Source of the DNA: Ampullaceana balthica
Taxonomy: Eukaryota; Mollusca; Gastropoda; Lymnaeidae
NCBI GenBank assembly: GCA_944989445.1
Contig: CALYLW010000182.1
Location: 1,054,501-1,118,500 of the forward strand
Direction: 5' to 3'
DNA length: 64,000 bases
How positions within the stretch are numbered: the first letter of the stretch is position 1; every line of letters starts with the position of its first letter. Below are positions 4,048 to 37,918 of this stretch, in pieces. The notes beneath the pieces are model-generated. The model was not told where the DNA came from. It saw only the letters and a list, made by a program, of their open reading frames with translations, and made no database searches. Both the position numbers and the translations under genes were made by a program.

Positions 4048-4662
4048 TTAGAGCAGCTCCATCGTTAAATCATTCCGGACCGCTGTGGCAAGACCTCGAC
4101 ATCGCCGGTCACACTTGCAATGGTATAGCGAGTAACCAGTGATATGAAACGGCTTCCCCTCAAGGAGCGTTTCTTGGAATAGTGCTACATCCACTTTCCG
4201 TTCGTGGGGTATTTTGGTTACTTCGTGTGCCTTTTGCCTTATGCCACAGACATTCAACTGTAAAACTACCAGGGCTTGTTCAGGATGGCCCTTCGCACCC
4301 ATACAAGGATGGCCAGTCACCGATTGACCGCTTGGACATGGCCTGTCGTTCGTCACCATGCCTCTAAGAGGGGAGGTAGCCAACCGACCCAACGTACCAC
4401 CATCCACCGAGAAGGGGTTTAGAAGGTCCATTCCGGGACCTGCTTTTTCGATAAATGAACCATAGAATAGAGAGGGGTAGGCAGAATTCTTCAACCCATT
4501 GAGCACGGTCCGTGTGCGTTCCGCCCCTTGCCCAGAGGGTGTTCCTGTCTTCGGCGTTCCTAGCCGGACATTGTTGGGTATGGGCCTGCTCCCACACCCA
4601 GCACCGGGCCTCTCGATGAGGCCATGACCGTCCCTCCAGTTGTCCGGAGGGTTCCAGTGCAT
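4048..4662 (-). pseudogene. LINE ORF: endonuclease N-terminal part
   Basis: This 204-codon segment contains the start of an apurinic-like (exonuclease-endonuclease-phosphatase) domain: LQLNVCGIRQK, then DVALFQETLL with the catalytic Glu, then GLATAVRND. In the retrotransposon this domain nicks the target DNA. The first ~100 residues (from MHWNPPDNW) are Gly/Pro-rich and may be translated 5' leader. The segment ends at a TAA (4048-4050). The next segment is in the same frame, so a single nonsense codon splits the endonuclease. Confidence 0.8.
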
Positions 4663-5242
4663 ATGTTTTGGCGATTTCGCCGGGGTTAGTCAGTTTCAGG
4701 TCGCAGCCACTTCCGCAACCCTACTTATCTCCCGGGCCCGTAAAGGCCAACCCCTTCCGAGAGATGAGACATAACTAAAAGTATTGATTATGTTCAAACG
4801 TGACAAAGATTTATAGACTGAATCTTTCTTAACTCCCCTTTGCTTTTAACCCGGAGGGGGGTGGGAGAGGGGAAAGGCCTTGTCACCGATCGCTGACCCG
4901 AGCTCAGCGTGACACGCAAAATGTAATCAAGAGCACGCCGGTACACCTGGTTAAAACACGAGATGTGTTCACCTCTGGCTGGCGTGAAGTCAAGTGACCC
5001 GTAAAATGTAAACAATAGTGACCGCTACATATAGTTTATATAGATAAACTAAAAATGCATTAATTTAATTACAGTACGTTCGATAGATCTGAAATTTTGA
5101 TACGATGCATTGTTAGGTGACTCAGGTCCGTTTGCCAAATTTCAGCTCGATGGCTTTACGGGAAGTGGGTCATTTTCGACTTTTGTTTTTCCGTGGTTCC
5201 CGACCAAGACAGAGAGAGACGGCGGTGAAGTTAATATAAGGG

Positions 5243-7029
5243 ATTTAATAAAACAAACCCGTAAAAACAAAGTTTTTACTATAAATCTAATATATAAAGC
5301 TCAGTTGGTGTTTGTATGTTTGTATTTTTGTAAGTTTGTATGTTTCACTTTTCGACTTTCTGTTAGACAGCCACGGAAAAACCAAATGACGGACGGGGAC
5401 CAACTTTGGCAGGATGGTTCCTTTTACCCTGAAGGTTGTTTTAAGTTAGTTTTTGTAATTGTCCCTTTTGCCCGAATGCCGTAAATTAAATAATCAGAAA
5501 ATGCAGAGACAAAGAATAAAAAATTTAACCTTATTTCTGTATTGAACAAATTTACGCAGACGTTCAAATGCCGTTCAAAGCGAGTTACTTTGGTGACGTT
5601 TTTTTCCCCCAATACTTTATTTTCAGCGGTGCGCATTCAAAAAATATTATAATGTCTAATTACGGTGCGCACATTTTGAGCTGTGTAGTACAAAGAATTG
5701 TCATTTTCTTTACTGTTACTTTCTATATATTAGATAGACACGTAAACATATTTAATTACAACTGCCACACGATGCATTAGATTTAATTGTTTACACGTTT
5801 AAATTTAATTGCAAATTTGTTTTAATTATTTTCTGTTCCATAACTCGACATTTAATAAAAACCTATTTATGTAATAATTGTGTCAGTATTTTTTTCAAGG
5901 CTTCATTTTTAGCGGTGCGCGTTCTAAAATCTTTTATCGCCTGATTACTGTGCGCACATTTTCATGTACGCATCTTAAATTTAGCTGTGCCCTATTAATA
6001 TAACCTTTACATTTTGTTTGTCTTTTACATAAGCTATTGTTTTTTTTACATAACCTATACACTTATACTATTTAAACTTAGGCTACCGGACCTATTACCA
6101 TAAGTATATTAAACTAAATAAAGTCATTCTGAAAACGCTTAATTATTTTGTATTGCGAATTGATTATGTTTTGTTCATTCCATTGATGATGGATTAACAT
6201 AGGCCATTTTTAAAAATCAATTATTGTCAAGGTTTCACATGCGTTTTTAACATAAAATTGATTTGTTTTGTTTTTTTGTTTTTTTAAACTAGGAAAATAG
6301 CCTAATTTCTTTATTTATCTTTATTACCTTTATCTCATAGACGCTGTTGCAAATATTGTATTAATTACAATTGTGTTACGATGCAGTGTCGTAAATATAT
6401 AAGAGCATTTTTAGTGACGGCAGTGGCAGAGATCTTTTGGAAAAATGTCAACAAAACAGTTGCCTTTTTTTAATGGATACAAACAAACAAACATAAAAAT
6501 ATGAACTTAGCTTTATATATTACATATGCGTTTAAATTATTTTAATTTTAATTATTTTCACGATGCATTGTATTAATATTTTACATGCAATGAATAAAAT
6601 TGGGATTTTAAAAAAATTAATTCATAACTGACATTTAATTAAAAACCATAGATGTAGCGAGTTTATTTTATGTTGAAAGTGATGGCCTATGTCAAATAAA
6701 CTTACACTTTAAAACAGTTTACTTAAGCTTTATATACACTATACATTATAAACTTTCGCTACCGAACGTATTAACAAAACTTGACTAAATTTAATGAAGT
6801 GATCCTGAAAACGCTTAATTAATATAAATTGCGAATTGAATATGTTTTTATGTTCATTCCTTTGTATTCAGAATAGCATAGGCCATTTCTAAAATTGCCT
6901 TTTAATCATTTTTAAGATGCACTTATTAACAGACGGTTGAATCTTTTTTTTTCATTTTTATTTTTTTTCAGACATTAAATCTGGTGTGTGTGTGTGCATT
7001 GCATATAATTTTAAAAGTATGATGCTTTA
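5243..7029. other. Repeat-derived non-coding DNA with internal direct repeats
   Basis: No gene is supported. 5243-5290 repeats the MITE start in direct orientation. 5300-5480 is a GTTTGTATGT-rich block followed by a GC-richer segment that looks repeat-derived. A motif beginning GCGGTGCGC and ending GTGCGCACATTTT recurs at about 5627-5690 and 5911-5965. A ~110-bp block beginning TATCTCATAGACG at 6337 recurs at 9250-9370 with about 80% identity by eye. These direct repeats suggest unclassified transposon fragments. Confidence 0.5.
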
Positions 7030-8886
7030 GGGGCCGTCCATAAATGACGTCACGCGATTTTTGCCGATTTTTGACCCCCTCCCTCCCCCCTCGTCACGCG
7101 ACGTCACAAAAACTTAGACCCCCCCCCTCTAAAAATACGTCACAAATCTTTGACAACAACAAAAAACAAAAAAAAACAACAACTTTATTTTCTATTTGAA
7201 AATAAGTATGTTTCAAATCACTTTTATTGTCATTTAAGTATTTATTATTTATTTAGTGAATATCTACATTGTAATATCGTAACCCGCGTGAAGCATTTTT
7301 AAAAAAACGTTTAACCGGCCTTCAGAAAACGAACTGTGTTAACATCCTTAGCTTATATTTTATTTTAATGAATACAAATTAAACATTGACTATTGATATC
7401 ATCACGGTTAACGTCTTTGTTTAGAAAAAAAATTATTTAAAAATAACATTTTTAAAATGTATTTTTTTAAAAATCCCTCAATTGACTGACGGGCATCCCG
7501 TAAGACAGAGGTCGGCGAACAGAGGTAAATAACCTGAACTGGGGTCAAAAAGGGAATTCTTGGGGGTAATGCAGACTCATTTGGGACATATAACATCCAC
7601 TACAATCCGCTAGATATATTAAAATACGTCATGTGTACGTGTACGCTTGGAACATATGCCCATTATTAAACAGGTTCCTTCCAGAAAATGCATTTTTAAA
7701 AATTTGACAACTATGTAGATTTCTTACCTACGCACTATATGAAGACACCTAAATCTACCCTACTTTCATTTATATTGACACGAGTGACAATAATCTTAAT
7801 CCACATGACTTGTCTTTATCACGTATCATTTCTGTGATATTTAAAATTAATGCCTTAAAAACTGAGCTAAGAAGAAAAGTTGTTTTGTTCTCCTCTCGAA
7901 TTGCAATGTCAAGAATTTGATGCATTCAATAAAGTTAATGAATACTTGACTAATTTTAAATGGGCTCATTTACCATTATATCTAGAACAGTGCTTCTCAT
8001 ACTTTTTAGTATTGCGGACCAGCAGGAATTTTTTCCATTGTACCAGGGACCGGTGCACTATTTTCCCTGCACTGACAATTTTTTCTGTCCTTTTTTGAGA
8101 ACATCTGCGGACCGGCAGCGGATGGCCCACGGACTGGCATCGGTCCGCGGACCACCACTTTGAGAAGCACTGATCTAGAAGACTAGAATGGCCAGGGGCG
8201 TTTTATCAAAAAACCATCGAACAATTATATCAAACTTAAAACGTTTTTAATTCTATCAAATAGATTCCCCCCCCTCCCCTTTTAAAGAAAAAGGATATTC
8301 CGTGTCGTTTTGACTTAAAATATCTACACATAATCCTATTCAAATCATTTTTAGACACTTGTCATGCTTGTAAAACTCACCAGTAGCATTTTCGAGGGGT
8401 GGGGGTGCTAAAGACGCTCCCCCAAATCCCCGAGTCACGTGAGCAGGACCTAGAGTCTGGGTAACGCATACATAAACTTGTATATTTTGTGGTAACGGGC
8501 ATGAGAGAACCAAACGGAGCTGCGGTTAGATCACAAATGCTTTGATGTCAACATCAAACGACGCAGTGTAACAATTTCATATGTTATCTTGTGGATTCTC
8601 AAATTTAAGGATTATAATTAGATTTAATTTTCGTGTCTTGATAGCATACGCCAACCAGCGTCTGATGGCCTACCGACCAGCACATTGAGAAGCACTGATT
8701 TTTAAAAGTCATTAAATAAATTGTAAGCGACCAAATATTTCAGTGGAAGTTTTATTTAAAGTTACCCTTTTGATGTGACGTCACATTTCTTTCAAACCCC
8801 CCTCCCTCCCCCTCGTCACGCAACGTCACAAAAGTGTGACCCCCCTCCCCCCCCCTAGGTGCGTGACGTCATTTATGGACGGCCCC
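7030..8886. mobile_element. Harbinger-like non-autonomous DNA transposon
   Basis: The left terminus is GGGGCCGTCCATAAATGACG. The right terminus is its reverse complement over the same 20 bases and remains palindromic in outline for about 100 bp (C-rich runs, TCGTCACGC, ACGTCACAAAA). A TTA trinucleotide flanks each side (7027-7029 and 8887-8889), the target duplication expected of PIF/Harbinger. There is no transposase inside. It carries a hAT MITE at 7988-8172 and a second partial copy of that MITE's end at about 8640-8697 (CACATTGAGAAGCACTG). A degraded inverted copy lies in the right arm around 30.4-33.2 kb. Confidence 0.75.
7988..8172. mobile_element. hAT-type MITE
   Basis: A 185-bp element with terminal inverted repeats CAGTGCTTCTCATACTTTTT and, at the other end, ACTTTGAGAAGCACTG. 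Inner sequence is also inverted (GCGGACC near the left, GGTCCGCGGACC near the right). It is flanked by a perfect 8-bp target duplication ATCTAGAA (7980-7987 and 8173-8180), the hAT signature. It is nested in the Harbinger-like element, so it is the younger insertion. No coding capacity. Confidence 0.9.
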
Positions 8887-10062
8887 TTATCCAAAATAGG
8901 GAACAGATTCCTTTTTTAAATTATACACATTGCTTATAAACTGTAAATATAAATCGTAAAATATAGAGACATAAAAAATGTTAAATAGTATTTCCCTGTT
9001 ACAATAATTATGAATACGTCAAATGGAGGAGTTATTTTTGTCCAGTACATTTACTTTATAACAAGACTTTATTTTATGCGACCAGCTTTCTATATTGTCT
9101 AAATATGGTGTGCACATTGTTTTGATGTCATTTTAATACGACCGGTTTTTTTTTAAAAAGTATTTAGAAAGTACATTTATAATTTTGTTTGTTTGCGCTA
9201 TGAGTTACTTAGCTTTTGCCTTTTAAAGGGATAGTGCCACATGTTCTTTATCTCATAGACGTGGTTACAAATATTATATAACTTACAGTTGTAATACGAT
9301 GCAGTTTCGTAATTATATATTAAATTTTTGAGTGACGAGTGTGGTAGAGCTCTTTCGGAAAACCTATAAGTTATGCTAATTTTGAACAAGTGGGAATGAA
9401 ATTGTAAATTTAGTTATTATGGTCGGCAAAGATCATTATTTAATAAATCATATCTTTTAAATAGTAAGGTTATGTTAAAAGGCACTGCATTAAGTTAAAA
9501 CAACTCATGCAGTAAAATGGCATATCTCTGTTTCTCATTAGATTTTAACTAAATAGATGAATCTGAAATTTAACTTGGAAAATAAAAATTGTAATAACCA
9601 GCAACTAATACTTGGATAAAGAGTCAGCACACTTCCGCTACAGAGTGCGGGTATTTTTCTAGCCCCTTATATATGAGACATAACTAACAGTATTTATTAT
9701 TTTCAAACGCGACAAACATTTAAAGACTGAATCTGTCTTAACTCAACTTTGCTTCATAACACTGGGGGGGGGGAGGGGAAAGAAAGCCTACAGTGGCTGC
9801 TGCAAATTTATTTCGTCACCATATACTAGCATTGTAGAAAATAATACGGGAGTCAGTTTATCAGAAAAATCCCCAATATGAGTGTTTACAGAAAAAGAGT
9901 GCTTTAGAGTTTTCATTATGCTTACTTTAGTTTGCCATTGAAAATATGTTCAGTGCTTCAACAGATCTACTTCAGACATATATTCTTAACGATGTTCAAA
10001 AAACATGATTATTATTTCTGCATTCAACACCAATAATAAGTTGGTGAGATACATGAGAATGT
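8887..10062. other. Non-coding repeat fragments
   Basis: No gene is supported. 9250-9370 is the second copy of the block at 6337-6450. About 9660-9785 is a fragment of the MITE-like family seen at 493-5242 (TTATATATGAGACATAACT, then GCGACAAACATTTAAAGACTG), truncated before its second half. The rest is AT-rich and not recognised. Confidence 0.5.
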
Positions 10063-10072
10063 GTACAGCAGT

Positions 10073-10116
<44 letters not shown>

Positions 10117-10144
10117 TATATATATATAATATATATATATATAT
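10063..10144. repeat. (TA)n microsatellite
   Basis: About 80 bp of nearly pure alternating T and A, abutting the left end of the MITE at 10145. A minus-strand ORF of alternating Ile and Tyr is the trivial translation of this tract. Confidence 0.95.
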
Positions 10145-10401
10145 GGTTCCATAACAAAACGACTAGGTGACACAACGACAAGGTCTCATAAAAACAATGT
10201 AGACCAATGTAGAACCCCCTAATGAAGTCCCATTGACGAGGTCACTTTGAACTTGGACTAAGCGTGCCAGACTCAATAGCTCAGCGGCCAAAACTAAAAA
10301 TACACTTAAGCCAAAATCATTGTCTTTTTTTTTCGTTTTCCCATTTAGAACTATGTCTGTCACCTTGTCGTTTTGTCACTTGTCGTATTGTCTGGTTACC
10401 A
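10145..10401. mobile_element. Short MITE inserted in a TA microsatellite
   Basis: The ends are imperfect inverted repeats: left GGTTCCATAACAAAACGACT followed by AGGTGACACAACGACAAGG, right CCTTGTCGTTTTGTCACTTG followed by TCGTATTGTCTGGTTACC. TA-rich microsatellite lies on both sides, consistent with insertion into a TA target. It is 257 bp with no coding capacity. The superfamily is not clear. Confidence 0.7.
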
Positions 10402-10411
10402 TAGATATCTA

Positions 10412-10418
10412 TCTCTCC

Positions 10419-10466
<48 letters not shown>

Positions 10467-10482
10467 GTGTGTGCGTGTGTGT
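10412..10482. repeat. Compound (CT)n-(TA)n-(TG)n microsatellite
   Basis: A run of CTCTCT is followed by TATATA and then by TGTGTG with one GTGCG interruption, directly beside the MITE. Confidence 0.9.
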
Positions 10483-11246
10483 GTAATTATAATCTGTTAA
10501 ATAACTACTGGCAATAAATTATACTTAAGTAAGAACATTTAATAAATTTCCATTAAGTAATGTGTTAACATACAAATACAATGAATAGCTTGATCATCGT
10601 TCAGATAATTTTATATACCAAGGTTAGAGTGTTAACATATAACACGAATGTTACATTATAATTATGCTCTTGTCGGCATCATTTCGCCCCCCTAGAATAA
10701 CAGGGTTCTATGTGACCTTTTTGTCGAACGGAGATATTCGAGTTTGAAAATTTGATGTTTGGGTACGACAAACTATACATGTTTTTGCCAAAGTTGTTAT
10801 TGCATTCTGTTTGTACTATCAATACAAGGTTTTACCATTTAATACAATTTTTTTTGGTGTTAATTTAGATTTTATATGAATTTTTTAAATTTTCAATAGA
10901 ACCTTTTAATTCTGAAAATGCCATTTCAATTAATTATAACAAGGTTCTATTATTTTTTACACTATAATTTTATTGGTTTATTTAAAGAAAAAGTACTTAT
11001 TCTTAATTAAGAGCTCTAATACTGATAAAGACAACAAAAAATAACAACAAAAGGATTATATTTAATCAAAGACAGACAATATTTGTTTATATTTTTCAAT
11101 GTATTTTTATTTATTTATTTGTACTAACATTAAAACTGTAACTTTTATTGTAAAAATAAATGTTTTTTACACACAGCAAAAATTGTTCTTTGACTTTCTA
11201 CATTTTAACATGTTACTGTAAGAGAAAAAATGCTATCATTTGTATG

Positions 11247-11937
11247 TTACTTAAGTGTGTTACTGTAATACTGCCTATCTATTTCTGGCATGTATTTTAA
11301 CATTTCTGTTAAGTCTGATTTCTTTGCCTCAGACAGTTTATTAGAAGAAATTGCAATCTTTGGCACAGGCATCAATACTTGAGTGGGTTGAATAGTTGTG
11401 ACACAACTTCTTGTCAAAATAGGTTTTCTTAAATTTATGTTTTCAAATGTTATGTCTTTATGGCTAAATTTGCAACAAACCATTGGCTCATTTTTAAATT
11501 TTATAACAGATACTTTGGAATATTTTACACATTGAAAGTTAAATATCTCAGCACATGCTTTAAAATCTTTAAAGTCATTTGCCCTCATCTGAATAATTAT
11601 AAAAGGTTTTTTTCTGTTTACAGTTTTAAGGACTCTAATTAGACTTATTGGGGAAAACACTTCATGTGCTTTTAAGGCTTTCTCAATTTGTGAATGCATA
11701 TTATCAACAACTTGAACACAAGAGTGACCAGGAACACTAAATTTCATGGTGACTGACTCAATGTGTGGATGTGTGTTCAAAAAATGAAGAACTGCATATG
11801 ATATTATGCTATTTTTGTTTTGAGGTACACATGAATCACTCCATGTTACAATGTTTTTAATGTCCATATCTGATTCAGTTATCCTTTCAAGGATTTTAAC
11901 AAAAGCTGAAGCTATATCATTGCCAGCTCTCCCAGAT
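11247..11937 (-). CDS. Transposase-like gene, exon 2 downstream part
   Basis: It continues exactly in frame after the 718-bp insertion is removed: SENLSGR joins AGNDIASAFVKIL across the duplicated target. Then come NIVTWSDSCVPQNKNSIISY (probable second acidic residue in WSDSC, with the conserved QNKN), KFSVPGHSCVQVVDNMHSQI, and KKPFIIIQMRANDFKDFKAC. It ends with a stop at 11247 after DRQYYSNTLK. With the upstream parts the protein is about 670 residues, a normal size for the family. The pattern FDLQ...WSDS...VDNMHS resembles a DDE/D integrase-like core. Catalytic assignment is inference. Confidence 0.8.
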
Positions 11938-12655
11938 CCTACATGTGGAAGAAAATCAGAAGCCCCGAGCCTAGTGCTCTTCATGGGTCTTCCTGGAAGA
12001 CCCATCCCAGCTATCTGGCCCCCTCCCCCAGAAAAGGACGTTGACAGCTGGGAAAACCCCCCCCGGAGCGGTCGCTTCTGAAGCGGCCACCTGGGCATCT
12101 AAGACAGAAAGTCGAGGATGCCTCCCACTAAGTTGGCCTCACAAGGAGGGGTGGAATTTCCTTACTACGACCCGCTACCACTTCGGCGCCACCCCGGCAA
12201 AGCATACGAGTCTCAATGGTTAGGATCGCCGCAATGCGGGGGATCATCAATGACCTACCTAGGGTGCAACCCCCATGGAAGGTTTCCTCAGAGCTGGCGT
12301 CCGCTGCGTTCTTCGCGGTACCTTTTGCTAATCCGTACTGGCGCTCCTGGCCCTAAACCGGCACCGCTCAATGGCGTTGCTAGTAAAATTGAGGGGGACG
12401 AAACGGTCACTTCGGATTTACCCGACCCTCAACGGGTACTTTGGTTTTCATCATCGACAATGCATTTAAGATGCTTTGTCTAAGATCCGTACAGCGACTG
12501 TAATCATATGTGACTAGCACCTAACCCTAACATATCGGACTTTGGCATTGCCTGCCGGGAGATGTTGGTTTCAGGTCGCCGAGTCACGGTCAGGTCCATG
12601 CCCCGCGACCCTACTCATCCGCCGAGCCCCGTAGAGGCCTCCCCCTTTCGACGGA
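11938..12655 (-). mobile_element. 718-bp retroposon in the transposase gene
   Basis: GC-rich, flanked by a perfect 11-bp target duplication CTCTCCCAGAT (11927-11937 and 12656-12666). On the minus strand its 5' end resembles the 5' end of the LINE at 545-4763: AAGGGGGAGGCCTCTACGGG then a GATGAGTAGGGT-like stretch, against GGGGTTGGCCTTTACGGG and GATAAGTAGGGT. It then contains no reverse transcriptase and ends TTCCACATGTAGG. This looks like a non-autonomous retroposon using LINE 5' sequence. The target duplication and lack of terminal inverted repeats support target-primed insertion. Confidence 0.75.
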
Positions 12656-12666
12656 CTCTCCCAGAT

Positions 12667-13871
12667 AAATTCTCTGACCAAATTACACAATAGCCTTGTT
12701 TACTTTTAGAAGAATATCTAGTTAAATTATAAACATTTAATTTTCTTCTGTAAAAAAAAGAACTGATGTCAGCCCTGGGGAGAGAAATGACATTTTGCAA
12801 ATCAAAGCTTATAACAACATCAACATGTTCATCTTTCAGGTCATTCTGAGCTGCTATGCGCATTGCATTTTTATTCTCAATGTGAGAAGCATAGTTTTCT
12901 GACTCTTTCTCTGTTAAGGTATTTTGCTCTTGTGCCACTTTGACACTTGCACAGAGATCACATCGATCCTTCTTTCTAGTGTGAAAGTTAATATTAAACT
13001 CTGTGTTAAAAATGTATCTATAATAAGAACCTTTTACAGGTGTTTGACCTTGTTCAAGTGACTGCTCTACAAATAGATCATACATTTTATTTATATTAAG
13101 GTCACACTGTAAAAACTCTTTTTGTGTAGATTTCCTACAGTAGTGTGATTCCACACGAGGAAAGCTATTGATATGATCAATCACAGTTTTTCTATCTATC
13201 TCTGAGATTTTTTTCTTGATGTGTTTGCCTCTTCCATCTCTGCATGGTGTGCCAGTAACAAAAATTTTTTATTATGGGTTTTGTATACCATTTTTTGACT
13301 TATTGCCAGAGTGCCAAGATAATAGTTCTTGCAAACTCTCACATTAGAGCCTGCAACTGCAAAGCTATAAAAATATGTGTTTAAGCGCCTAGATTCATTT
13401 TCTGCACATTTTTTAAAACATTGACTAGTATTTAAAATATATGAATGCTTTTGATCGTAATGAAGCGTATAAAAGTTTTTGAAAATGTTTTCCCTTTCAG
13501 TTGTTGAAATTTTGGTTTCACATTTAAACTTGCAAATCTTTTTACAGTCTTTTAGATGCTGAATTTTCTTTTCAGGAACAACCTTGTTCCTTATATTTAT
13601 GTAAGCCTGCCCAGCTTCAGACAATTTGTTCCTCTGATTGCATTTCCAATTCTCAGGATTGCGTTGTCTTTTCCTTGTCAGCTTCTTACTGCCATTAGTG
13701 TCACTGTTAGATGCTCCTATTTCTAAATTAGTTTGACCTATCAAAGGTGTGCTGGCCTCTCTTGGACATGTCTCAGGAGTTTGACTGCAGTTTTTGATGT
13801 TCTGCTCAGTCTGAGTTTCACTCTCATTGAATGTATGCGATGCTGGCATCAGAAGGTGCAAGTGAGACTGA
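12667..13871 (-). CDS. Transposase-like gene, exon 2 upstream part
   Basis: This part carries family hallmarks: CKFKCETKISTTERENIFKN (a Cys-containing basic helix near the middle), the segment GRGKHIKKKISEIDRKTVID, SHYCRKSTQKEFL, NFHTRKKDRCDLCASVKVAQ, and SFDLQNVISLPRADISSFFY, whose Asp may be the first acidic residue of an RNase H-like fold. The reading frame shifts once inside the run AAAAATTTTTT at about 13260-13271. The upstream frame there ends at 13196. The protein belongs to a common invertebrate family that I recall being annotated with an uncharacterised C-terminal domain (DUF7869). That name is from memory. Confidence 0.75.
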
Positions 13872-14213
13872 CTATGAGGGATGAAGGAATGCTGGGAAAA
13901 AAAATAAAGTGGAGTTAAAACTAAAGTAAAGGCTTACCAACTTAAAACTTTAAAAGCTTAACTTAATAATTGTAAAGAAATGAACTTATGGACTATATAA
14001 ATGTATATGTGTTAAAATTATTTTTTAAAAAGCAACTGAAAAAATATTAACTTCTGTTATGCATCTGCATTATTCTTTAATTGATACAGACCAAAGACTC
14101 GAAGAGTGTGCAACTGTAACTACACACCTGACCTCGTTTCGATTATGTTGGCTCAAACCGCTCAATATTAACTATTTTGCATTTAGAAACAATATTTGAA
14201 TAAAAATACTTAC

Positions 14214-14335
14214 ATGTCTTCTTCAGAAGAACTATCACATTGCAGTGGATAGTTGTAGTCACTGCTATTAGTGTCATTTTCACTTGAAGAGGCAGAGGTA
14301 CTTGAAAAACTAAGCCTAGTGACGACGTCCGCCAT
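14214..14335 (-). CDS. Transposase-like gene, exon 1
   Basis: It starts at ATG (14333-14335), MADVVTRLSFSS, and continues as a Ser/Asn/Asp/Glu-rich leader to SSSEEDM. It ends at a strong GTAAGT donor after two bases of a codon. A matching acceptor one base out of codon phase exists at 13871 (CATAG|T). Joining there restores the exon 2 frame, whereas the upstream CCCAG at 13892 would lead to a stop. The exon is acidic and low in complexity, as is common at the N-terminus of such proteins. Confidence 0.65.
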
Positions 14336-14665
14336 TTTGATACAACCCACCCGTACCAGGGTATACAACAAGGCATATGATTGGCTGGTTATGTTAAACT
14401 AAATCTCAAAGCCCTTTTTTCAGTGGCTTATGGTAGATAGGACCTTGTTAAAACCATAATGAATATTAGAACTTTGTAATTTTCATTGGAAAGGCCTATC
14501 TCGTGTTAGAACCTTGTAATTCTGTACTTTCTGCAAAATTGGCTCACGATACAGCTTTCAGATTTTGTGCTATGATAGATTGAAACATGGGCAATATCCC
14601 AGGGGTGATAACTCATTTTTGTCAAAAAATAAGCTTCAAGCCTTGTTATTCTAGGGGGGCGATTT

Positions 14666-14934
14666 AGTAAACTGATTGTATGTGATAAGAATGAGTGGTT
14701 TCCTTCAATTTAAGTCCTTGTTTCCTATTTCATTTCCTTCAACACCATGCCCTAGTTGAAAACTAACCTTCTCGGAAAGAAAGTGAATTAATGAGTTATC
14801 GGAAGTTTATTGTGCTCAATACTCATTAGTTGACATTGTTTCTTAGACTTTTGTAGCAAAACGAATGTGTGTAAGCTAGTAAAATGTGTAAAATAAAACG
14901 ACTGTAGAATATAAATAAAGCAAACTTAGAAGAT
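14666..14934. other. Presumed upstream region of the Ig-like gene
   Basis: No repeat or gene is recognised. It lies between the transposon and the signal-peptide exon and is AT-rich. A TATAAATAAAG stretch at about 14911-14921 sits just before the ATG at 14935, but no initiation element can be assigned. Confidence 0.4.
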
Positions 14935-15001
14935 ATGGATTACTTATATATTTTAATTATCGGACTTATTTTTAGAGATAATAAAGTAATTTCAGCAAAA
15001 G
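14935..15001 (+). CDS. Ig-like secreted/membrane protein, signal-peptide exon
   Basis: ATG opens MDYLYILIIGLIFRDNK, a short hydrophobic leader, ending in VISAK. The exon closes after one base of a codon at a good donor (AAAG|GTAAGA). The next exon begins two bases into that codon, so the join reads ISAK then VKLTIPCD. Small phase-1 signal exons preceding Ig-type domains are common in animals. The function is unknown. Confidence 0.6.
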
Positions 15002-16157: not shown

Positions 16158-16493
16158 TAAAATTAACCATTCCTTGTGATCCTGCCGAAGAGGCAACAGT
16201 TTACATAATTCAGTTCAATTCTACGATAAAACACAATAAAGACAGTATGATACTTATCGAGGCTCACAGTGGCCGAGTAGCGACCTGTAGTGATGGCAAA
16301 AATTCATGCTCAACACGTCAACAGGATCTCTACAATTCAAGTATTTTGGTGGTCAATGGTAGAGTACAAGTAAACCTCACAGTATACAACGTATCGAGGG
16401 AAACCCTGCGCTCAGATGAGCGGTTTTACTTTAGAGTTATCATTCAAAGTTCTTTGAGTGAGGAAGAAATTACATGTTGGCCAACTGTTTATC
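16158..16493 (+). CDS. Ig-like extracellular domain exon
   Basis: A 336-bp exon between a CCACAG acceptor and a GTAAGT donor. Both boundaries are phase 1, the symmetric arrangement used by shuffled extracellular modules. The peptide begins VKLTIPCDPAEEATVYIIQF, contains RVATCSDGKNSCSTRQ, then VQVNLTVYNVSRETL and ends EEEITCWPTVY. Four cysteines (CD, CSDGKNSC, ITCW) and several N-glycosylation sequons (NST, NSS, NLT, NVS) fit an Ig-superfamily-like ectodomain, possibly an immune-type molecule. The fold is inferred from pattern. Downstream exons are not in the window because the sequence folds back at about 18 kb. Confidence 0.55.
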
Positions 16494-16619
16494 GTAAGTT
16501 TTCCTTAGGAAAAAAACATTTATTGGATTTATTAAACTTTTAAAACAAAATATATGTTCAGCAAATCAATAGAATTGCGCTTCTCTCTCTTAAATTAAAA
16601 AAAAATAATAATAAAATTT

Positions 16620-27400: not shown

Positions 27401-29339
27401 GTCCGACTAAGAGCATAGATTATAATGTAACTAGGTTCGTGTTGATATGTTCACTACTCTAGACCTTGGTTATAAAATTATCTGAACGATGTTCAACAAG
27501 CGTTATGTTCATTGTATTTGTATGTTCTAACATTCATTACGTAAGGTGGAAATTTATTAAATTCTTACATTACAGTATACTTTATTGCCAGTGAGTTATT
27601 TAACAGTCTATAATTACACACGATCACGCACACAGCACAGTATATGATCATCATATATTATAGTATTATATATATCATAGAGAGAGAGAGAGAGGGAGAG
27701 AGATAGATAATTTCTAGTGTGTCAACCAGCACAATAGCGACAACTAAAAACAGATGACGAAAACGACTAGGATGGACAGACATGTTCTACATGAAATACG
27801 ACAGACAAGACAATGATTTTGCTTAAGTGTATTGTTTGTGTTTTGGCCGCCGACCTGTGGCTATCTGCGGGAGTCTGGCACGCTTAGGTCACGAAGTTCT
27901 AAAGTGTACCTACGAGTCAATGGGACTCATTACTGTTCTACATTGTGCGGGCTCTCTACAGCCAATTGTTTTTATGAGACCACTTGTCGTTGTGTCACCT
28001 AGTCGTTTTGTGTATAATTATGCGAACCTTATATCATATATATATTATATATATATATATATTTATATGTATGAGTAGATATATGTATATACATAGTCTG
28101 TGTATATAACTGCTGTACACGAATTAGCTCATATGTATCTCATTCAACTTATTATTGGTGTTGAATGCCTGAAATAATTATCATGTTTTTTGAACACGTC
28201 TCGTGAAGAAATATACCTGTCTGGAAGTGAGATCTGTGTGAAGTCATCTTGAGAACATATTTTCAATGGCAAGAACTTAAAGTAATGCATAAATGTGAAA
28301 ACTCTAAAGCTCTCTTACTTTTTTAGTTTATTTTCTGTAAACTCTCAGTATTGGGGATTTTTGCATTGTCTGTGAAGATAATGACTGTCATCACGCGTAT
28401 TTTTTACTACAATGCTGAAGCATACTGGTGACGAAATAAATTTGCAGACAGCCACTGTAGGCATTATGCCATACCTTGTTCCCCTTCACCTCCTTTTTCT
28501 ATCATTCGCACTATAGCTTAGCTGCAAGGCAGCAGTTGAGTTTTGAAACGCACAGTGAGTTAAGACAGATACAGTCTTTGATAATGTTTGTCGCTAGTTT
28601 GGACAAGTAGATAAATGTCTTGTAGTTATGTGCTCATATATAAGGTATGGCTAGAAGCAAAATCCCGCACTCTGTAGCGGAAGTGTGCTGACTCGTTATA
28701 GTCCAAGTATCGCTTATAGGCTGAGGTTGCGTGTTATTACAATTTTATTTGCCAAGTTGAAATGTCAGATTCATGCCTATTTGAGTTAAAATCCTAATGA
28801 GAGATCATGAGATATTGCCATTTTACTGGCAATGATTTTGTTTTAAAAAAAAAAAAAAAAAAAAAAACCTTCTTAAATAGTCAAGTCGCGCTTTTAAAAA
28901 AACCGCATAACCCTTACTTAATTAAAAGTGAGTAATGCAAGTTAAATTAAAAATAAGATGCATTGCCGACCCCATCCGCAAATAAGAAATAAATACTAAA
29001 ATTTTACCCCACCTTTTTTCATAAATTCATTCCCACTTGTTCAAAATTAGCGCTATAACATAATAGGTGTTTATCTTCCTCTTACCCCCGAAAGAGCTCT
29101 ACCAACACTCTTCACATTCAACAAATTTAATATAACATTAACGGAACCTAACTGCATCGTAAATAAAAACAAACTATGTAAAGATATATAATTAATTTGA
29201 TAACCACACAAGTTGAGTCTATGTGGGAAAATCAAGAGAACATGTAGGCACCTATCCCTTTAAAAGGCAAAAGCTAAGAAACTCATAGCCGCAACCAAAA
29301 ACCAAATAATAAAATTTATAAACTTATCTAAATTACGGA

Positions 29340-30010
29340 CTAATTTTTTTTTTTATAATTTTTAAAATTAAAAAAAATTAATAATAAAAAAATAAAGTAA
29401 TTTTTTTTAAGTAAAATTATACATTTTTAAATTTTTGTTTAAAAATAAAAAGTATTTAAAATATTGAATATTTATTTAATAAAATACAAAAATTTAAATA
29501 ATAAAAAAATTAAAATTAAGAAAATATAAAAAAAGAAATTTATATAATTAGTTTTATTTTAAAAAAAAACAAAAACCGGTCGTATTAAAAATTAAAGATA
29601 AACAATGTGCAACTCACCAATATTTAAGACCATATAATAGACACTAGCGTGGTCCGCGCATAAAATTAAAAGTCATGTTATAAAAGTAAATGTACTGGAC
29701 AAAACTAATAACTCCCTTCTTCCATCTTGACGTATTCATAATTATTTGTATACAGGGAAATTATCTATTTAAATAAACAAATTTCTTTTATATTTTATTT
29801 TTTGTTTTTTATTTTTTATTTTTTTATATTTGGTATCAGATTTTTTATATTTTTATGTGTCAAAAGCTCTTTCTCTATAATTTTAAAACGATTTATAGAT
29901 TTACAGTTTATTTAGCAATGTGAGATAAAAACTGCTTAGAAAAAAGAGGGAATCTTTTTTTGTTTTTTTTTATATTTTATTATTTTTTTTTTTTTTTGGT
30001 TTTTTATTTT

Positions 30011-30048
<38 letters not shown>

Positions 30049-30277
30049 TTTTTTATTATTATTTTTTTTTTATTTTTTTTTTTTTTTTTGTTTTTTTTTT
30101 TTTTTATTTTTTTTTATTTTTTTTTTTTGTTATTTTTTTTATTATTTTTTTTTTTTTTTATTTTTTTTTGGTTTATTTTTTTTTTATTTATTTTTTTTTT
30201 TTAATAATTTTTTTTTTTTGTTTTTTTTTATTTTTTATATTTTTTTTTTTTTTTTTTTTTTTTGTTATTTTTTATTT

Positions 30278-30318
<41 letters not shown>

Positions 30319-30345
30319 TTTTTTTATTTTTTTTTTTTGTTCGCC
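29340..30345. repeat. Low-complexity AT tract with long poly-T
   Basis: 29340-29570 is nearly pure A/T. About 29957-30340 is almost unbroken T with sparse A or G. In the left arm the matching position (about 8893-8915) has GGAACAGATTCC with only a handful of extra T, so roughly 400 bp were gained here. The 141-codon Phe-rich ORF at 29960-30385 is an artefact of this tract. Confidence 0.85.
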
Positions 30346-31413
30346 TAACCTACTAAATCAAATCCCACCCCGAAAAGGAGTGTAGTATCCCATTTTGGCT
30401 ACCTACCCCAACGCCCCCCATCATTATCGCCGACCCAAGGAGCGTTGTGCGTGTGTTCACAAACTTAAGTGACGTAGCTGATTAATCTCTTGTGATGGAG
30501 GTTGCTGGAATCACTCACTGAGACTAGTACATTCCCGCCCCTATTCGAAAAGGATACCAATAAATAAAAAACCAAAATCCACTGAGAAATCTTTTAGGAC
30601 GCTTACCATATACATTAATTTACCATATTTTTTTTCTAGTAATTGAAATTAAAACAATGCATCCTCCCAATGTTGGCTGGTCGGTAAGGGGAGGGCCATT
30701 CAGAGCTTAGCTGGTTGGCTGTATGCAAACAAAGACACGTACATTAAAATCTACCTTATAATCATGTTAAAATTTGATAATCCACAAGATAACATATGAC
30801 CTGTTTACAACAGACTGCTTCGATTGATGTAGTACATCAAATCAATTGTGATCTAAGAACCGCTAGCTCTACCGTTTGGTTTCACCGCTTCATGCCCGTT
30901 ACCACAAAAATCTTACAAGTTAATGTAAGTAAAAAGCGTAAGTATTTCTAAAAAAACACCCACCAACATCGACGCGTAAAAGCCAAAAGCACCGTCGGGC
31001 CTCAACCCCACCTCTACGTCCCGGGTACGATCCACACTCGTCCCCTCCCAGACATCTAGGTCCCTGCTCATCGAGACTCGGGAATTGGGGGAGCGTCTTT
31101 AGCACCCCCCACCAGGCCTCCTCACCTCCCCCCACGCCCCCCGAAAAGTGAACTTACTCGTCGAGCTTTTTACAAGGGCCTTGACAAGTGTCCAAAAAAT
31201 GATTTGAATTAGGATTTAGATGTGTAGATAATATTATTAAAAGAGTCAAAACGTCCCACGGAATCTCCTTTTTTTATTTTTCTTTTCTTTTTTTTTTTTT
31301 TTTTTATTCCTTTTTTTTTTTTCTTTTTTTTTCTTTAAAAGGGGAAGGGGGGTATCTATTAGATAAGAATTAAAAACCGTTTTAAAAAGCGTTTGATTAT
31401 AATTGTTCCGAAT

Positions 31414-31452
<39 letters not shown>

Positions 31453-31516
31453 CTTCCCACGTGGTCAACTCTAGGTCTTGACTTTTAGTCCTGTTTTCTG
31501 ATATATCTAGATCACA

Positions 31517-31812
31517 GTGCTTCTTACATACGCTTTCGCTCCTTCGGCTTCTACGCCTGCTACTAATCTCTTTCCCTCATCAAAGTGGTGGTTCCGCGGA
31601 CCGGATGCCAGTCCGTGGGGCCATAGCCGGCTTCGTGTGGTGAGAGGGTTGGCCCGAAGGTCGGCGCAGATGTTCTCCGATGTTCTCAAAAAAATGGACA
31701 ACGACAAAAAAAATTGTCAGTGCAGGGAAAATAGTGCAACCGGTTCCTGGTACAATGGAAAAAAATTCCTGCTGGACCGCAATACTAAAAAGTATGAGAA
31801 GCACTGTTCTAG
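31517..31812 (-). mobile_element. Mirror copy of the hAT MITE, with extra bases
   Basis: It is the reverse complement of 7988-8172, with GAAGCACTG-type ends and the same ATCTAGA flanks. It contains an unmatched burst of about 45 bp near its start, so it is 295 bp instead of 185. It shows the insertion-rich corruption of this arm. Confidence 0.75.
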
Positions 31813-32435
31813 ATAATAATGGTAAATGAGCCCATTTTAAATTTAGGTCAAGATATTCATTAACTTTATTGAATGCATCAAATTCTTGACATTGCATCGA
31901 GAGGAGACACAAAACAACTTTTCTTCTGCTTCAGTCTCTTTTTTAAGGCATTAATTTTAAAATATCACAGAAATGATACGTGATACAGACAAGTCAGTGG
32001 ATTAAGATATTGTCACTCGTGTCAATATAAATGAAGTAGGTTAGATTTAGGTGTTCTTCGTATATAGTGCGTAGGTAAGAAATCTACATATTGTCAAATT
32101 TTTAAAAAATGCATTTTCTGGAAGGAACCGTTTAATAATGGCATATTTTCCAAGCGTCACACGACGATGACGTAGTCTTAAAAATTTTTTAATATACTAG
32201 CGGATTGGTAGTCGGATATTAATATTTATAAATTAATATTAATGTCCCACAGCCCGTATATGATCTTGACACTTACCTCCCAAGAATTCCCTTATTTTGG
32301 AACCTACCAAGTTCATGGTTATAGTTCACCCCTCCTGTTCCGCCGACCGATCTCTGTCTTACTGGATGCTGCCCGTCAGTCTCAATTGAGGGATTTTAAA
32401 AAAAATAAACATTTTAAAAAAAAATTTAATTTTAA

Positions 32436-32996
32436 AATAATTTTTTTTTTTTTTTTTTAAAAATTTTTTTTTTATTTGTTTTTTTTTTTTTTTTTTTTTG
32501 TTTTTTCTTTTCTAAAAACAAAAAGTATACAGACAAAAACAAAAGAGGAAACCGAGACATGAGGCTACGAAGCGCGGTTTAACACTTTTGATGAATCAAA
32601 TCCAAGTAGGTCAGGATGTTTAAACAAAATTTGTAGTATTCCCGCTTTTCACCAGCGCACACATGTCCATTAAAATACAATATAAGCTATGAGAAGGATG
32701 GTTAACACAAGTTCGTTTCTAAGGGGGTAAAATGGGGACATGGTTTTTTTTTTTAAAAGCTTCACGTGGTGTTACGAAATTACAATGTATATATCCACTA
32801 AATAATAAATATAAAATACTTAAATGTGACCATAAAATGTGAATTGAAACATACTTATTTTCCCAAAAAGAAATCAAGATAAATCTTGTTGTTTTTATTT
32901 TTTTTGTTTTTTTTTTTTTTTTTTTTTTTGTGTGTGTAGAGTTTTTTTTTTTTTATTTTTTTTTTTATTTTTTTTTTTTTTTTTTGTTTTTTTTTT

Positions 32997-33036
<40 letters not shown>

Positions 33037-33055
33037 TTTTTGGGGGGGGGGGGGG
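32436..33055. repeat. Repeated poly-T tracts
   Basis: Two long T-rich runs (about 32436-32520 and 32893-33050) are followed by a G-run. They fall opposite short homopolymers in the left arm near 7.1-7.45 kb. The Phe-rich and Lys-rich ORFs on the two strands are trivial translations. Confidence 0.8.
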
Positions 33056-34974
33056 TCCAAGAAAATTGTGACGGTACAACTCTTTTTAAAGGGAGTGGGG
33101 GCTCTAATTTATTTGGTGACGCAGAGGTAGTGCGTGTGACGAGTGGGGGAGGGAGGTAGTGTCAACAAATCCTCGGGGGACAAACAAAAAAAAATCGCGT
33201 GACGTCATTTATGGACGGCCGCCCTATAGAAGCCATCATACTTTTAAAATTTTATGCAATTGCCTCACACACACACGTTGCTAACCATAATTTAAAAATG
33301 TCTGAAAAAAAAATAAAAATGATAAAAAAAAGGATTCAACGCGTCTGTTAATAAAGTGTCATAATCTTTCTTAAAAATGATTATTTAAAGTGCGAATTTT
33401 AGAAATGGCCTATGCTATTCTGAATAACAAAAGAGTTAGGATGACATAAAAACTGTCACTTCGCAATTAATATATTAATTATCGTTTTCAGGATCACTTC
33501 ATTAAATATTAGATCAAGTTTTGTTTATACCTTCGGCTTAGCGATAAAAGTTTATATTGTATAGTGTATTAAAGCTTAAGTAATGCTGTAAGAGTTTATT
33601 TGACATAAGGCCTAATCACGATTTCCAAACATAAAAAGTAAAGACTATCTACAACATCTAAGGTTATTAAAATTAAATGTCAAATAAGGAATTAAATTTT
33701 TTTTTTTTTTTTTTTTAAATCCCAATATTTTTAAAAAATATTTCATTGCTTGTAAAATAAATTAATCACAAAATGAGCATCGGTGAAAAAAATTAAAAAT
33801 AAAAATAATGTAAAAAACGCATATGTACGACATAAAATATACAGCTAAATTCATGATTTTTTTTTATATATTATTATATTTTTTGTTTGTTTTTGGGTTT
33901 GATTTTACTATTTCGAGAAATCTAACCCCCCATGTCATAGTTAACCATTATTTATAAAAAAACACAAAAATAAAAAAAAAAAAAAAAAAGCACACTGTAA
34001 ATTTATTATAAATTAAGGGGTAATATTTTTTTATATATTTAGCGATTTTTATTTTTTTTTTTTATAAAAATTTTAATTATTATGTTTTATGGAACTTTTA
34101 CTGAGCCGAAGGCTGTAGACAGTATATTATTGGGGTATTGAATAGCAACCATGAACATAGCCTATTAAGATAATATTTTTTTTTGTATTTTTTTTTTTCT
34201 TTTTTATATTTTATATATTTTTATTTCCCAGAACAAATCTTATCTCTGTGCCAAAAAGGCTGGACAGTTATGCTATTTACTAGCCGACCACAAAAAAATG
34301 GTCCTCTTGATATATTTTACGACAAGACTACCGCATCTGTTAACGACAATTGTATATTAATTACAATATTTGCAAAACAGCGTCCTATGAGATAAAGGTA
34401 AATAAGATTAAATCAAAGAATTAGGCTATATTTTTTTTCGCTCACTAGTTTAAACAAAAAAAACAAAAAAAAAAAACCCAAACAAATTCAATATTTTATG
34501 TTAAAAAAATATCATGATAAACCATGTAACGAAATATTGATTATTAAAAAATGCCCTAGCTATTTTAATCCATCATCAAGTGTAATGAACAAAACAAAAT
34601 CAATTCGCAATACCAAAATAAATGGGGGGGGGTAAGCGGTTTCCCGCGACTGACTTTAAATATTAGGTTTACTAAACTATGGTAATAGATCCGGTAGCCA
34701 AAGTTTAAATAAGAATATATGAGGAATAGGTTATGTAAAAAAAAAACAAATAGAGCTTATTGAAAAAATTAACAAAAACAAAATTGTAAAGGTTCTAACA
34801 TTAACCAACCCACCTCGGGCCCCACTGCTCCCAAAACAGCCATTCATCCCAAGGCCCAAGATCTGCCCCCGACATGATAAACAGAAACTGCCCGTTCCTA
34901 ATAACCGACATTTTAGAACGCGCACCGTCTAACAAAAAGAAGACCATTCAACAGCACAATCCTTACTCCCATAA

Positions 34975-36300
34975 TAACTCCCACAGGTTTTTACACCTGT
35001 CTCTAAACTTGTAACCCGCCCCACAAACCCAGGCCCCCACTAAATCCCATCCCAAACCCCGCTCTCCCTCCCCTCATCTCAGTCCCCCCCACCACCCGCT
35101 CCCCCTTGCCCCCCCCCAACCTTCGCCACCTCTCCCCCCCCTACCCCCACCCTCCTCCCCCTATTAACCTCCCACCTCCCTTCCCCCACCCCATCTCGCC
35201 CCCCCAATTGTCTCCAATATCGCCTCCCTGCCCACCGCCCGCCCCCCCCCCCCCCCTATACCCCCCAACGCCCAATCACCCCATCCACTAAAATTCCTAA
35301 ATACCCAACCCACCATTAACACACCTCTCTATATCACCAGCACCCAAACACTCCCCTACCCCACCTACCCCTCCCCAAGTGGCCCCCACAAACAAGTAAT
35401 ACACACCTCCCCTCCCCAGCACACGACCAGATCGCATGGTTTCCCCGTACACTTTTCCCCAGGAACATCACAATATATAAGCCTTTCAGCCTCCCGATTT
35501 TGGACTCACCCCACTCCTCGCCATACTCTCCGCGCCCGTCTCTTCCCAAATAACGAAAATCAAGTTGGTTACCCCCCCCCCCACCCCCCCTGACCCTTCC
35601 CCCTAAACATCTCAAATACCGGCCTTAGCGCCCCTTCGGTTTAGGTGGGGTTGGTCATCTAACAATATATATGGTTGAACAAAAACCTACAATAAGGTTA
35701 ACTTATAAAATATTATAATACAACTATTGGACAATCTGCATTCTATATCTACTGCAATTATATCTATAATACTACGCCCCTCTCTCATAAACCACCACCC
35801 TAAAAACCCCTCATCAAATATCCTCCGTAAACCCCCCTGCCGTGCAGACCTCTCCCCCCCTGCCCCCCCACCCCCCCTCCTTTAAGTCTTTTCTTTCTGT
35901 CGTCCTTTCTTCGTCTCTGTTTGTATGGCCCGATCTCCTTTTCTTCCCTCGCTCACCTTCTCGCTCACTACCACCAAAGCCGGCTCAAACGGAGAGTGAG
36001 GAGGTATACACCAAGCCCCCAGACCTCTACACCTGACTCAGTTTCCTTGTCTGACGAATGTGTGCATGTCTCCCCATGTTCTCCCTCGGCTCCCTCAGAC
36101 CCCACTCCCCACCAACCTCCTAAGCCCTACACCCACCACGCCATCGCCCCCCATATTACCCCCCACGCCCCCGCCACCAACTCATACGTCGTCTCCCCCA
36201 CCCCGCCCCCCCCCACCCCCCAGCCACAACCACCCCCCACCTCCTCATCCACCTCCGTTGCTGTTACCCCGGCCAGCCCCCCCCGACTATAAACACCATC
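34975..36300. repeat. C-rich low-complexity stretch in the inverted arm
   Basis: About 1.3 kb is dominated by CCC and CCACC runs, with no match to the left arm, which at this place (about 5.3-5.6 kb) is AT-rich. Several Pro-rich ORFs result. The change in composition inside otherwise mirrored sequence marks it as unreliable. Confidence 0.7.
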
Positions 36301-36739
36301 CAAAGTTGGTCTCCCGTCCCGGTCATTAGGCTTTTTTTGCTAGTACTCCGTGGCAAGCGTCTAAAAACAGAAAGTGTCGACAAAGGTGGAAACATATCAC
36401 AACCAATAGCAAAATATAACGCACAACATGACAAAAACACCAACTTATTTTCTTTTTATTAATTAAATAAAAATTATTGAAGTAAACACATATTTGTTAT
36501 AATTATCTTATTTTTTAATAATTTTTTTATGTGTTATTTTTTTTTTTTTTTTGTAATAAACGTGGTTTGTTTGTATGAAAATAAAAAATTTAAAAAAAAA
36601 CCAACAGTCTCCCTTAATTTAACTTCATTTGAACATTAAAAAACTTCATTAAACTCCGCCCCACGTAACACAGGAGGCCCGGCAGGCACAGTACCGTACT
36701 CGACGACGCTGCGAATGCCGTAGACCAGCCGTCACTACT

Positions 36740-37871
36740 CTTATCTCTCTCCCCTCCGACTCCAATGTCGTTCCTTAAGGTGCGAACAAAGAAACCACGG
36801 AAGAAACAAAGTCGAAAATGACGTCGGACAACTTCCCCCCCCATCCCACGTAAAGAGGCCAACGAGCTGAACGTATTTGGCCACGACGGACCTGATAGGT
36901 CGACACGCCATAAACATCAGAGTCAAATGGCCCACTAGTGTATCCAAAAAATTTCAGGATCCAATCGAACTTTATACAGTTAATTAAATTAATGCATATA
37001 TATTTCTAAGTTTATCTAAAATAAACTCTATTGTAGCAGGTCAACTGTAACTGATTTTGTATTACCAATTTTAACTAGGGTCAACATTGGAAAGCCTTCA
37101 CCGGCGACGCCATAGGATGAAAAAATACCAACGGTTATCTCGTGTTATTTAATAAATAAACAAAAAAAACCAAGGTGTAAACGCGGGCGATTGCTCACGT
37201 TGGAATTAGACACTTACCAACGCCCAGACACCACCAAAACCGTTAGAATTGATGTTGGGATTTTGCCGGTCTGTAGGGTGGTGTCAACGCTGCAGCTCGG
37301 GTGATACAGATCGACGGAAGAGCCCGAATCGGTGACAAAGGCCCAGTTTTTTTCCCCCCCTCTCTCGCCCACCCAGGGCCCCCTTACCATCTCTCGGGTT
37401 AAAAAGCAAAGGGGTGTTAAGAAAGAGAACCATGCGCCAACAAATTCCAGTCCTATAAATGTTCTATGGGTCACAAGTTTGGAAACATTCAGAATCAATT
37501 ACTATTTAAATTAACGGTTATCGGGATGGACATCGTGCAATGATTTTTTTCTCCTTTTGGCTTACTCCGCTTCTATGTTAATTGCATCTCTCTTCTCCGA
37601 ACGGCGACGTTGTTCCGGACTCGAATTACCGTGCCCGGAGATAAGTAATGGGTTTGCGTGGAAGGAGGGTGGGTTCAGAGGTATTTTGGTGGGGATCGGG
37701 GAGCGGATGGCTTGGGGGGGGCGTGAGGAAGAAGTCGCCTTGCGACCTGAAACTGACTAGACACCCGTGCGAACATCGCCAAAAAACAAAATTCGCACTG
37801 GACAAAAGCCACTCAAAACCACAATAGAAGCCGGATCTAATCGGGGATCCTCCTCATCTCGCACTGACAGA
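36740..37871 (-). repeat. Mirror copy of the MITE half and LINE 5' end
   Basis: In reverse complement, 36740-37040 follows 5030-5240 (CATTTTCGACTTTG, CCGTGGTTTC). 37560-37871 follows the LINE 5' end (GCGACCTGAAACTGACTA at 37742-37759 matches the minus strand near 4700). It stops abruptly at the gap. Confidence 0.75.
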
Positions 37872-37918
37872 NNNNNNNNNNNNNNNNNNNNNNNNNNNNN
37901 NNNNNNNNNNNNNNNNNN
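37872..37918. other. Assembly gap (47 N)
   Basis: A run of 47 N. Sequence quality and content change completely across it: mirrored, noisy repeat DNA before, clean single-copy genic DNA after. Confidence 1.

What the first reader, a model, noticed from the sequence alone, without database searches (positions are those of the whole stretch)
4570..37871. A 33-kb inverted repeat ends at an N gap: probable fold-back artefact
The order and content of 4.57-17.9 kb are repeated in reverse complement from about 18.1 kb to 37.87 kb, including nested transposons with their target-site duplications, so the mirror was made after all those insertions. Real inverted duplications this complete would be nearly identical or diverge by substitution. 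Here only the right arm is corrupted, chiefly by insertions, and it stops exactly at a 47-N gap. That fits a single-molecule read that went through the second strand and was never polished. A true but rearranged palindrome is the alternative.
Basis: partly seen in the sequence, partly recalled or inferred. Interest (0 to 1): 0.85.

Follow-up and report, generated by a model that had tools for sequence, protein, structure and literature searches.

The report
Unpolished fold-back read in genome assembly
About 20 kb of this animal genome assembly is most likely not real sequence but the uncorrected second pass of one sequencing read over the neighbouring 13 kb: an ordinary assembly error, though a long one.

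Summary
Observation confirmed; interpretation supported. Window 4615-17269 (left arm) is mirrored by 37858-18672 (right arm). At the axis (centre about 17,971) lies a 1.4-kb spacer with no mirror symmetry, and the right arm ends 13 bases before the 47-N gap. Against 11,270 left-arm bases the right arm has 5197 inserted, 340 deleted and 189 substituted bases, with 32 transitions and 157 transversions. Its cleanest stretch shows 9.9% insertions, 1.5% deletions and 0.6% substitutions, like simulated PacBio CLR noise. Third copies of repeats side with the left arm in 1629 columns and the right in 65. In 264 kb of scaffold, 33 homopolymers of 12 or more bases lie in the right arm's 19.2 kb, 27 of them T; the other 234,653 bases hold none. 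This fits one raw single-molecule fold-back read. PacBio CLR fits better than nanopore, because the noisy arm is 1.5 times longer than the clean one, and nanopore's is reported shorter (PMC7229812). Not shown: the reads, the assembly method, a hairpin adapter (no SMRTbell trace above chance at the axis) and the origin of the spacer. The true sequence beyond about 17.27 kb is unknown.

The parts
4615..17269 (+). Left arm: consensus-quality genomic sequence, the template of the mirror
   Evidence: Agrees with third copies of repeats and with repeats in 200 kb of surrounding scaffold; no homopolymer of 12 or more bases
17270..18672 (.). Axis spacer without mirror symmetry; right half probably read noise, left half undecided
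   Evidence: Mirror score not above shuffles; no match in 200 kb of neighbouring scaffold; composition test lowest 2% (right half) and lowest 8% (left half) of 311 native segments
18672..37858 (-). Right arm: reverse-complement copy of the left arm at raw single-read quality
   Evidence: 5197 inserted, 340 deleted, 189 substituted bases per 11,270 left-arm bases; 33 homopolymers of 12 or more bases against 0 in 234,653 other bases
29955..30338 (+). 384-base T-rich burst inside the right arm, absent from the left arm
   Evidence: Tandem-repeat finder; appears as insertions against left 8883-8899
35001..36500 (.). C-rich, G-poor burst inside the right arm
   Evidence: C 0.54, 0.37, 0.39 and G 0.07, 0.12, 0.13 in three 500-base bins; 35000-35700 scores below all 311 native segments
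37872..37918 (.). 47-N scaffold gap at which the right arm ends
7988..8172 (+). 185-bp terminal-inverted-repeat element with 8-bp target duplications, mirrored with its flanks in the right arm

Best explanation
The right arm, and at least part of the axis spacer, is one raw single-molecule read, most likely PacBio CLR. The polymerase read an insert of roughly 13 kb along one strand, turned round at the hairpin end without the adapter being recognised, and read the other strand back to the far end of the insert near 4.6 kb. The assembler took the read as a contig end. A scaffolder then joined the next contig across 47 N. Shown here: the mirror, the error spectrum, which arm is wrong, and the end at the gap. 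Inferred: one read, PacBio, the missed adapter, and what assembler and scaffolder did.
For: Colinear mirror, 0 matches in 20 shuffles. Insertion-dominated errors with 32 transitions to 157 transversions. The cleanest stretch has 8 sub, 124 ins, 19 del; simulated CLR noise gives 12, 129, 21, simulated 10% divergence 68, 51, 47 and ONT-like noise 38, 42, 84. Third copies agree with the left arm 1629 to 65. Homopolymers of 12 or more bases: 33 in the right arm, 27 of them T, 0 in the other 234,653 bases. The 283-aa open frame of the left arm falls to at most 84 codons in six frames of its right-arm copy. The arm ends at the N gap. PacBio errors are insertion-dominated, ONT's are not (PMC6879543, passages); missed adapters and long low-quality segments are named PacBio read artefacts (PMC6304105, passage); raw-read sequence can enter assemblies through solitary reads (PMC8848313, passages).
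Against: No SMRTbell adapter above chance at the axis (28; shuffled mean 27.8, max 36). The spacer's left half should be mirrored if the turn was a simple hairpin, and it is not. Single-base insertions equal a neighbour less often than chance (216 of 631, expected 285), which does not point to base stuttering. The deletion share (13% in the cleanest stretch) is below PBSIM3's RS II ratio of 6:55:39 sub:ins:del (PMC9713900, passage). A table in PMC5964698 lists deletions above insertions for raw PacBio data (passage). A survey saw virtually no fold-backs in PacBio HiFi, and 0.55-0.6% in ONT genomic reads (PMC12870357, Results). No reads could be inspected.
Confidence: 0.92

Rival explanations
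1. The library molecule itself was an inverted chimera made during amplification or strand displacement, with the 1.4-kb spacer as its unmirrored loop, and one raw read of it entered the assembly. The result is still a single-read artefact; only the step at which it arose differs.
For: The spacer is not mirrored, as a loop of true genomic DNA would not be. Whole-genome amplification makes such palindromes in PacBio data (PMC6218980, abstract and Background).
Against: The right half of the spacer is C-rich and G-poor like a burst inside the right arm, and scores in the lowest 2% of native segments. No evidence that the library was amplified.
Confidence: 0.2
2. A nanopore fold-back read (template followed by complement) with poor base calls in the second arm.
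For: Fold-backs are commoner in ONT genomic reads (0.55-0.6%) than in PacBio HiFi, and some have about 2 kb between the arms (PMC12870357, Results).
Against: Low-quality second arms in nanopore reads of inverted duplicates were shorter than the first arm (PMC7229812, passages); here the second arm is 1.5 times longer. Insertions exceed deletions 15 to 1, unlike ONT errors (PMC6879543, passages).
Confidence: 0.05
3. A real genomic palindrome, fixed or in one haplotype, whose right arm was assembled badly.
For: The mirror is colinear and includes a transposon with its target duplications. Sequence alone cannot exclude that the molecule was truly palindromic.
Against: A real palindrome at normal depth should have both arms polished; only one arm is raw. 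Substitutions in the cleanest part are 0.6%, leaving little room for divergence beyond read error. The mirror stops at a contig end.
Confidence: 0.03

Closest known systems
Missed-adapter and strand-jump reads of PacBio CLR (artefacts that the patch phase of a PacBio assembly corrects, PMC6304105, passage)
   Same: Long-read sequence that doubles back on itself, with long low-quality segments, harmful to assembly
   Different: Here it survived into the scaffold; no adapter remnant above chance
Fold-back reads profiled by Breakinator (PMC12870357, abstract and Results)
   Same: Second segment maps to the same place on the opposite strand; some reads have about 2 kb of unmapped sequence between segments
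   Different: That survey saw them mainly in ONT data and virtually none in PacBio HiFi
Palindromic reads after whole-genome amplification (Pacasus, PMC6218980, abstract and Background)
   Same: Inverted chimera read by PacBio
   Different: No evidence on whether this library was amplified

Membership tests
Single-read fold-back artefact | Second arm is the reverse complement of the first in full order | tested here: met
   24 opposite-strand matches, 19 on the mirror line and 5 displaced in order; 0 in 20 shuffles
Single-read fold-back artefact | One arm at consensus quality, the other at raw-read quality | tested here: met
   Third copies 1629 to 65; homopolymers 33 to 0; insertions 115 per kb in the right arm's repeats against 38 in the left arm's
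Single-read fold-back artefact | Supported by one read only, with no other molecule crossing the axis | not testable with these tools
   No reads available
PacBio CLR missed adapter | Insertion-dominated errors | tested here: met
   5197 ins, 340 del, 189 sub; cleanest stretch matches simulated CLR noise
PacBio CLR missed adapter | Adapter remnant at the axis | tested here: not met
   SMRTbell score 28 against shuffled mean 27.8, max 36. The adapter may be hidden by noise, so I file this as a fold-back read and only as probably a missed adapter
PacBio CLR missed adapter | Mirror symmetry up to the turn | tested here: not met
   17270-18672 is not mirror-symmetric; noise there could hide it
Nanopore fold-back | Low-quality second arm shorter than the first | tested here: not met
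   Right arm 19,187 against left arm 12,655 bases; expectation from PMC7229812 passages
True genomic palindrome | Arms near-identical, or diverged mainly by substitution | tested here: not met
   189 substitutions against 5537 indel bases, transitions 32 of 189

The most novel reading that the evidence does not exclude
The sequenced molecule was a genuine, rare (somatic or heterozygous) palindrome with arms of about 13 kb and a loop of real DNA at 17270-18672, seen by one poor read.
Probability: 0.03. Interest if true: 0.3.

Novelty: not a real feature. Interest (0 to 1): 0.1.

Why it matters
About 20 kb of this scaffold should be masked: it adds false transposon copies and could be mistaken for a young 13-kb palindrome. 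The mark used here, runs of 12 or more identical bases next to a reverse-complement copy, is cheap and could flag similar stretches in this assembly and others. The unknown sequence really begins near 17.27 kb, not at the N gap.

Tried and rejected
Adapter search. The first 21 bases of the SMRTbell hairpin (recalled) match once in the window with 3 mismatches, at 41396-41416 in a GAA-rich coding repeat, far from the axis (0 expected in 100 shuffles). At the axis neither strand of the full adapter exceeds block shuffles. A 13-base Illumina adapter tail (recalled) scores 20 at 18502-18514, equal to the best of 100 shuffles; the whole window also scores 20 while 10 shuffles of it reach 22. I count this as chance.

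Spacer as noise: the composition test is suggestive for the right half and weak for the left; most 700-base right-arm segments are unremarkable in it, so it is a weak test.

Left arm raw as well: considered because its CpG ratio is higher than that right of the gap. Rejected because third copies and surrounding repeats agree with it and it has no long homopolymers.

Aligner bias: six repeat pairs aligned with the arm settings gave 5-12 substitutions against 11-58 indel bases, with insertions and deletions roughly balanced. That aligner therefore under-calls substitutions, and the spectrum was judged against simulations run through it. Transitions were 20 of 48 in those pairs against 32 of 189 in the arms.

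Species: protein searches found for the LINE at 577-2004 4 proteins, best 72% over 46%, and for 52026-52466 371, of which 120 were listed, best 96%. The host was not identified. Rfam gave 0 matches at gathering score. A second copy of the left-arm end elsewhere in the own genome could not be searched (below). Paper searches: (0 papers).

Full report
WHAT IS THERE. A self-comparison of the window and an alignment of 4.0-18.4 kb against the reverse complement of 17.0-37.87 kb show one large inverted repeat: left arm 4615-17269 (12,655 bases), right arm 37858-18672 (19,187 bases). Between the arms BLASTN finds 24 opposite-strand matches; 19 lie within 6% of a straight mirror line and cover 6096 of 12,655 left bases, and 5 keep the order but are displaced. 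Each of 20 block-shuffled right arms gives none. Parts of the arms align poorly because of insertion bursts: insertions per left base vary from 0.05 to 2.39 between 250-base bins. The right arm ends at the 47-N gap, its last 13 bases without a clear partner.

THE AXIS. The last clearly paired bases are about 17,269 and 18,672, so the centre is near 17,971. The 1.4 kb between is not mirror-symmetric (score 29; 200 shuffles mean 31, max 48). It has no match in 200 kb of surrounding scaffold, and its part 17600-18600 was found once in the own assembly, at this place (which scores only the best candidates). Its right half has 36% C and 15% G, like 35.0-36.5 kb inside the right arm, and falls in the lowest 2% of 311 native segments in a composition test; the left half falls in the lowest 8%. 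I take the right half as probable read noise and leave the left half open.

WHICH ARM IS WRONG, AND HOW. Over left bases 6000-17269 the right arm has 10,741 matches, 189 substitutions (32 transitions, 157 transversions), 340 deleted and 5197 inserted bases, in 1298 insertion runs of which 631 are single bases; the longest exact run is 70. In the cleanest stretch (12750-13999) there are 124 inserted, 19 deleted and 8 substituted bases per 1250. Through the same aligner, simulated noise of 1% sub, 10% ins and 2% del gives 129 ins, 21 del, 12 sub; simulated 10% divergence gives 51, 47, 68; ONT-like noise gives 42, 84, 38.

Third copies of repeats show which arm departs from the truth. In eleven three-way alignments (six repeat pairs, five used in both directions, so not all independent) the third copy equals the left arm against the right in 1629 columns and the reverse in 65; the one third copy outside both arms (45231-45551) gives 378 to 13. 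Against 200 kb of surrounding scaffold, left-arm repeats (53 matches) have 109 mismatches, 38 insertions and 27 deletions per kb; right-arm repeats (13 matches) have 98, 115 and 19.

Homopolymers give the plainest mark. The window lies at C182:1054501-1118500 of an assembly of 1.097 Gb in 3363 contigs. In 264 kb of that scaffold (C182:954501-1218500) there are 33 runs of 12 or more identical bases in the right arm's 19,200 bases and none in the other 234,653 unmasked bases; 27 of the 33 are T on the + strand. Such strand bias is what one strand read once would leave (inference). A 283-aa open frame in the left arm with a DUF7869 match has no open stretch longer than 84 codons in the matching right-arm stretch.

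THE MIRROR POSTDATES THE INSERTIONS. A 185-bp element with terminal inverted repeats and 8-bp target duplications lies at 7988-8172. Both flanks are in the right arm, one exact and one split by inserted bases. I checked only this element.

MECHANISM. The simplest account is one raw single-molecule read that went along an insert, missed the adapter at the turn and came back to the insert's other end. The mirror's end near 4.6 kb would be the far end of the insert, and the contig end the end of the read. One read, the missed adapter and the assembler's behaviour are inferences. PacBio CLR is preferred because PacBio errors are dominated by insertions and ONT's are not (PMC6879543, passages), and because low-quality second arms in nanopore reads were shorter than first arms (PMC7229812, passages), whereas here the second is 1.5 times longer. 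PMC6304105 (passages) names missed adapters, polymerase strand jumps and long low-quality segments as PacBio read artefacts. PMC8848313 (passages) reports low identity of sequence put in by some gap fillers, and an option that inserts raw sequence from solitary reads.

AGAINST. No SMRTbell remnant above chance at the axis, and no symmetry in the spacer. Single-base insertions equal a neighbour less often than chance (216 of 631, expected 285). The deletion share is lower than the 6:55:39 sub:ins:del of RS II reads in PBSIM3 (PMC9713900, passage). A table in PMC5964698 lists deletions above insertions for raw PacBio data (passage). A survey saw virtually no PacBio HiFi fold-backs (PMC12870357, Results).

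RIVALS. An amplification chimera (PMC6218980, abstract and Background) would leave a loop of true DNA at the axis and is not excluded; it is still a library artefact. The 0.92 for a single-read fold-back covers both origins, and the rival's 0.2 is a share within it. A true palindrome is unlikely because normal depth would have polished both arms.

VERDICT. An artefact: well supported, ordinary in kind, of low biological interest. Whether another contig holds the true continuation past 17.27 kb could not be tested: the search of the own genome with 15900-17269 was asked 13 times and never answered.

Noticed in passing
577-4047 (minus strand): LINE retrotransposon with endonuclease (PF14529), reverse transcriptase (PF00078) and RNase H (PF00075) matches in three separate open frames.
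   Followed up: partly
11247-13933 (minus strand): Open frames that read like one transposon protein gene in pieces, the last with a DUF7869 match. A GC-rich stretch around 11.94-12.15 kb between the pieces has an inverted relative at 15809-16032 (79%).
   Followed up: partly
38001-60000: Most 500-base bins right of the gap have a CpG observed/expected ratio below 0.5, while most of the left arm is higher. This may reflect mosaic methylation or different element content.
   Followed up: no
C182:954501-1218500 outside the right arm: Homopolymers stop abruptly: 139 runs of 9 or more bases, 22 of 10 or more, 0 of 12 or more in 234,653 bases. Either the genome is poor in them or the consensus shortens them.
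   Followed up: no
40488-42554 (plus strand): 688-aa open frame with repeated acidic units and a 24-base tandem array, no Pfam match.
   Followed up: no
C182:1092372-1092418 and 1159144-1159243: The scaffold has a 47-N gap (this one) and a 100-N gap, so two gap conventions may be mixed.
   Followed up: no
52026-52466 (minus strand): LINE-like fragment with 371 relatives (120 listed), best 96% on an unnamed 1669-base ENA contig, 63% in the snail Littorina saxatilis. The host is perhaps a marine invertebrate.
   Followed up: partly
38481-63526: Many tandem arrays with units of 13-111 bases right of the gap, several over 95% identical between copies.
   Followed up: no
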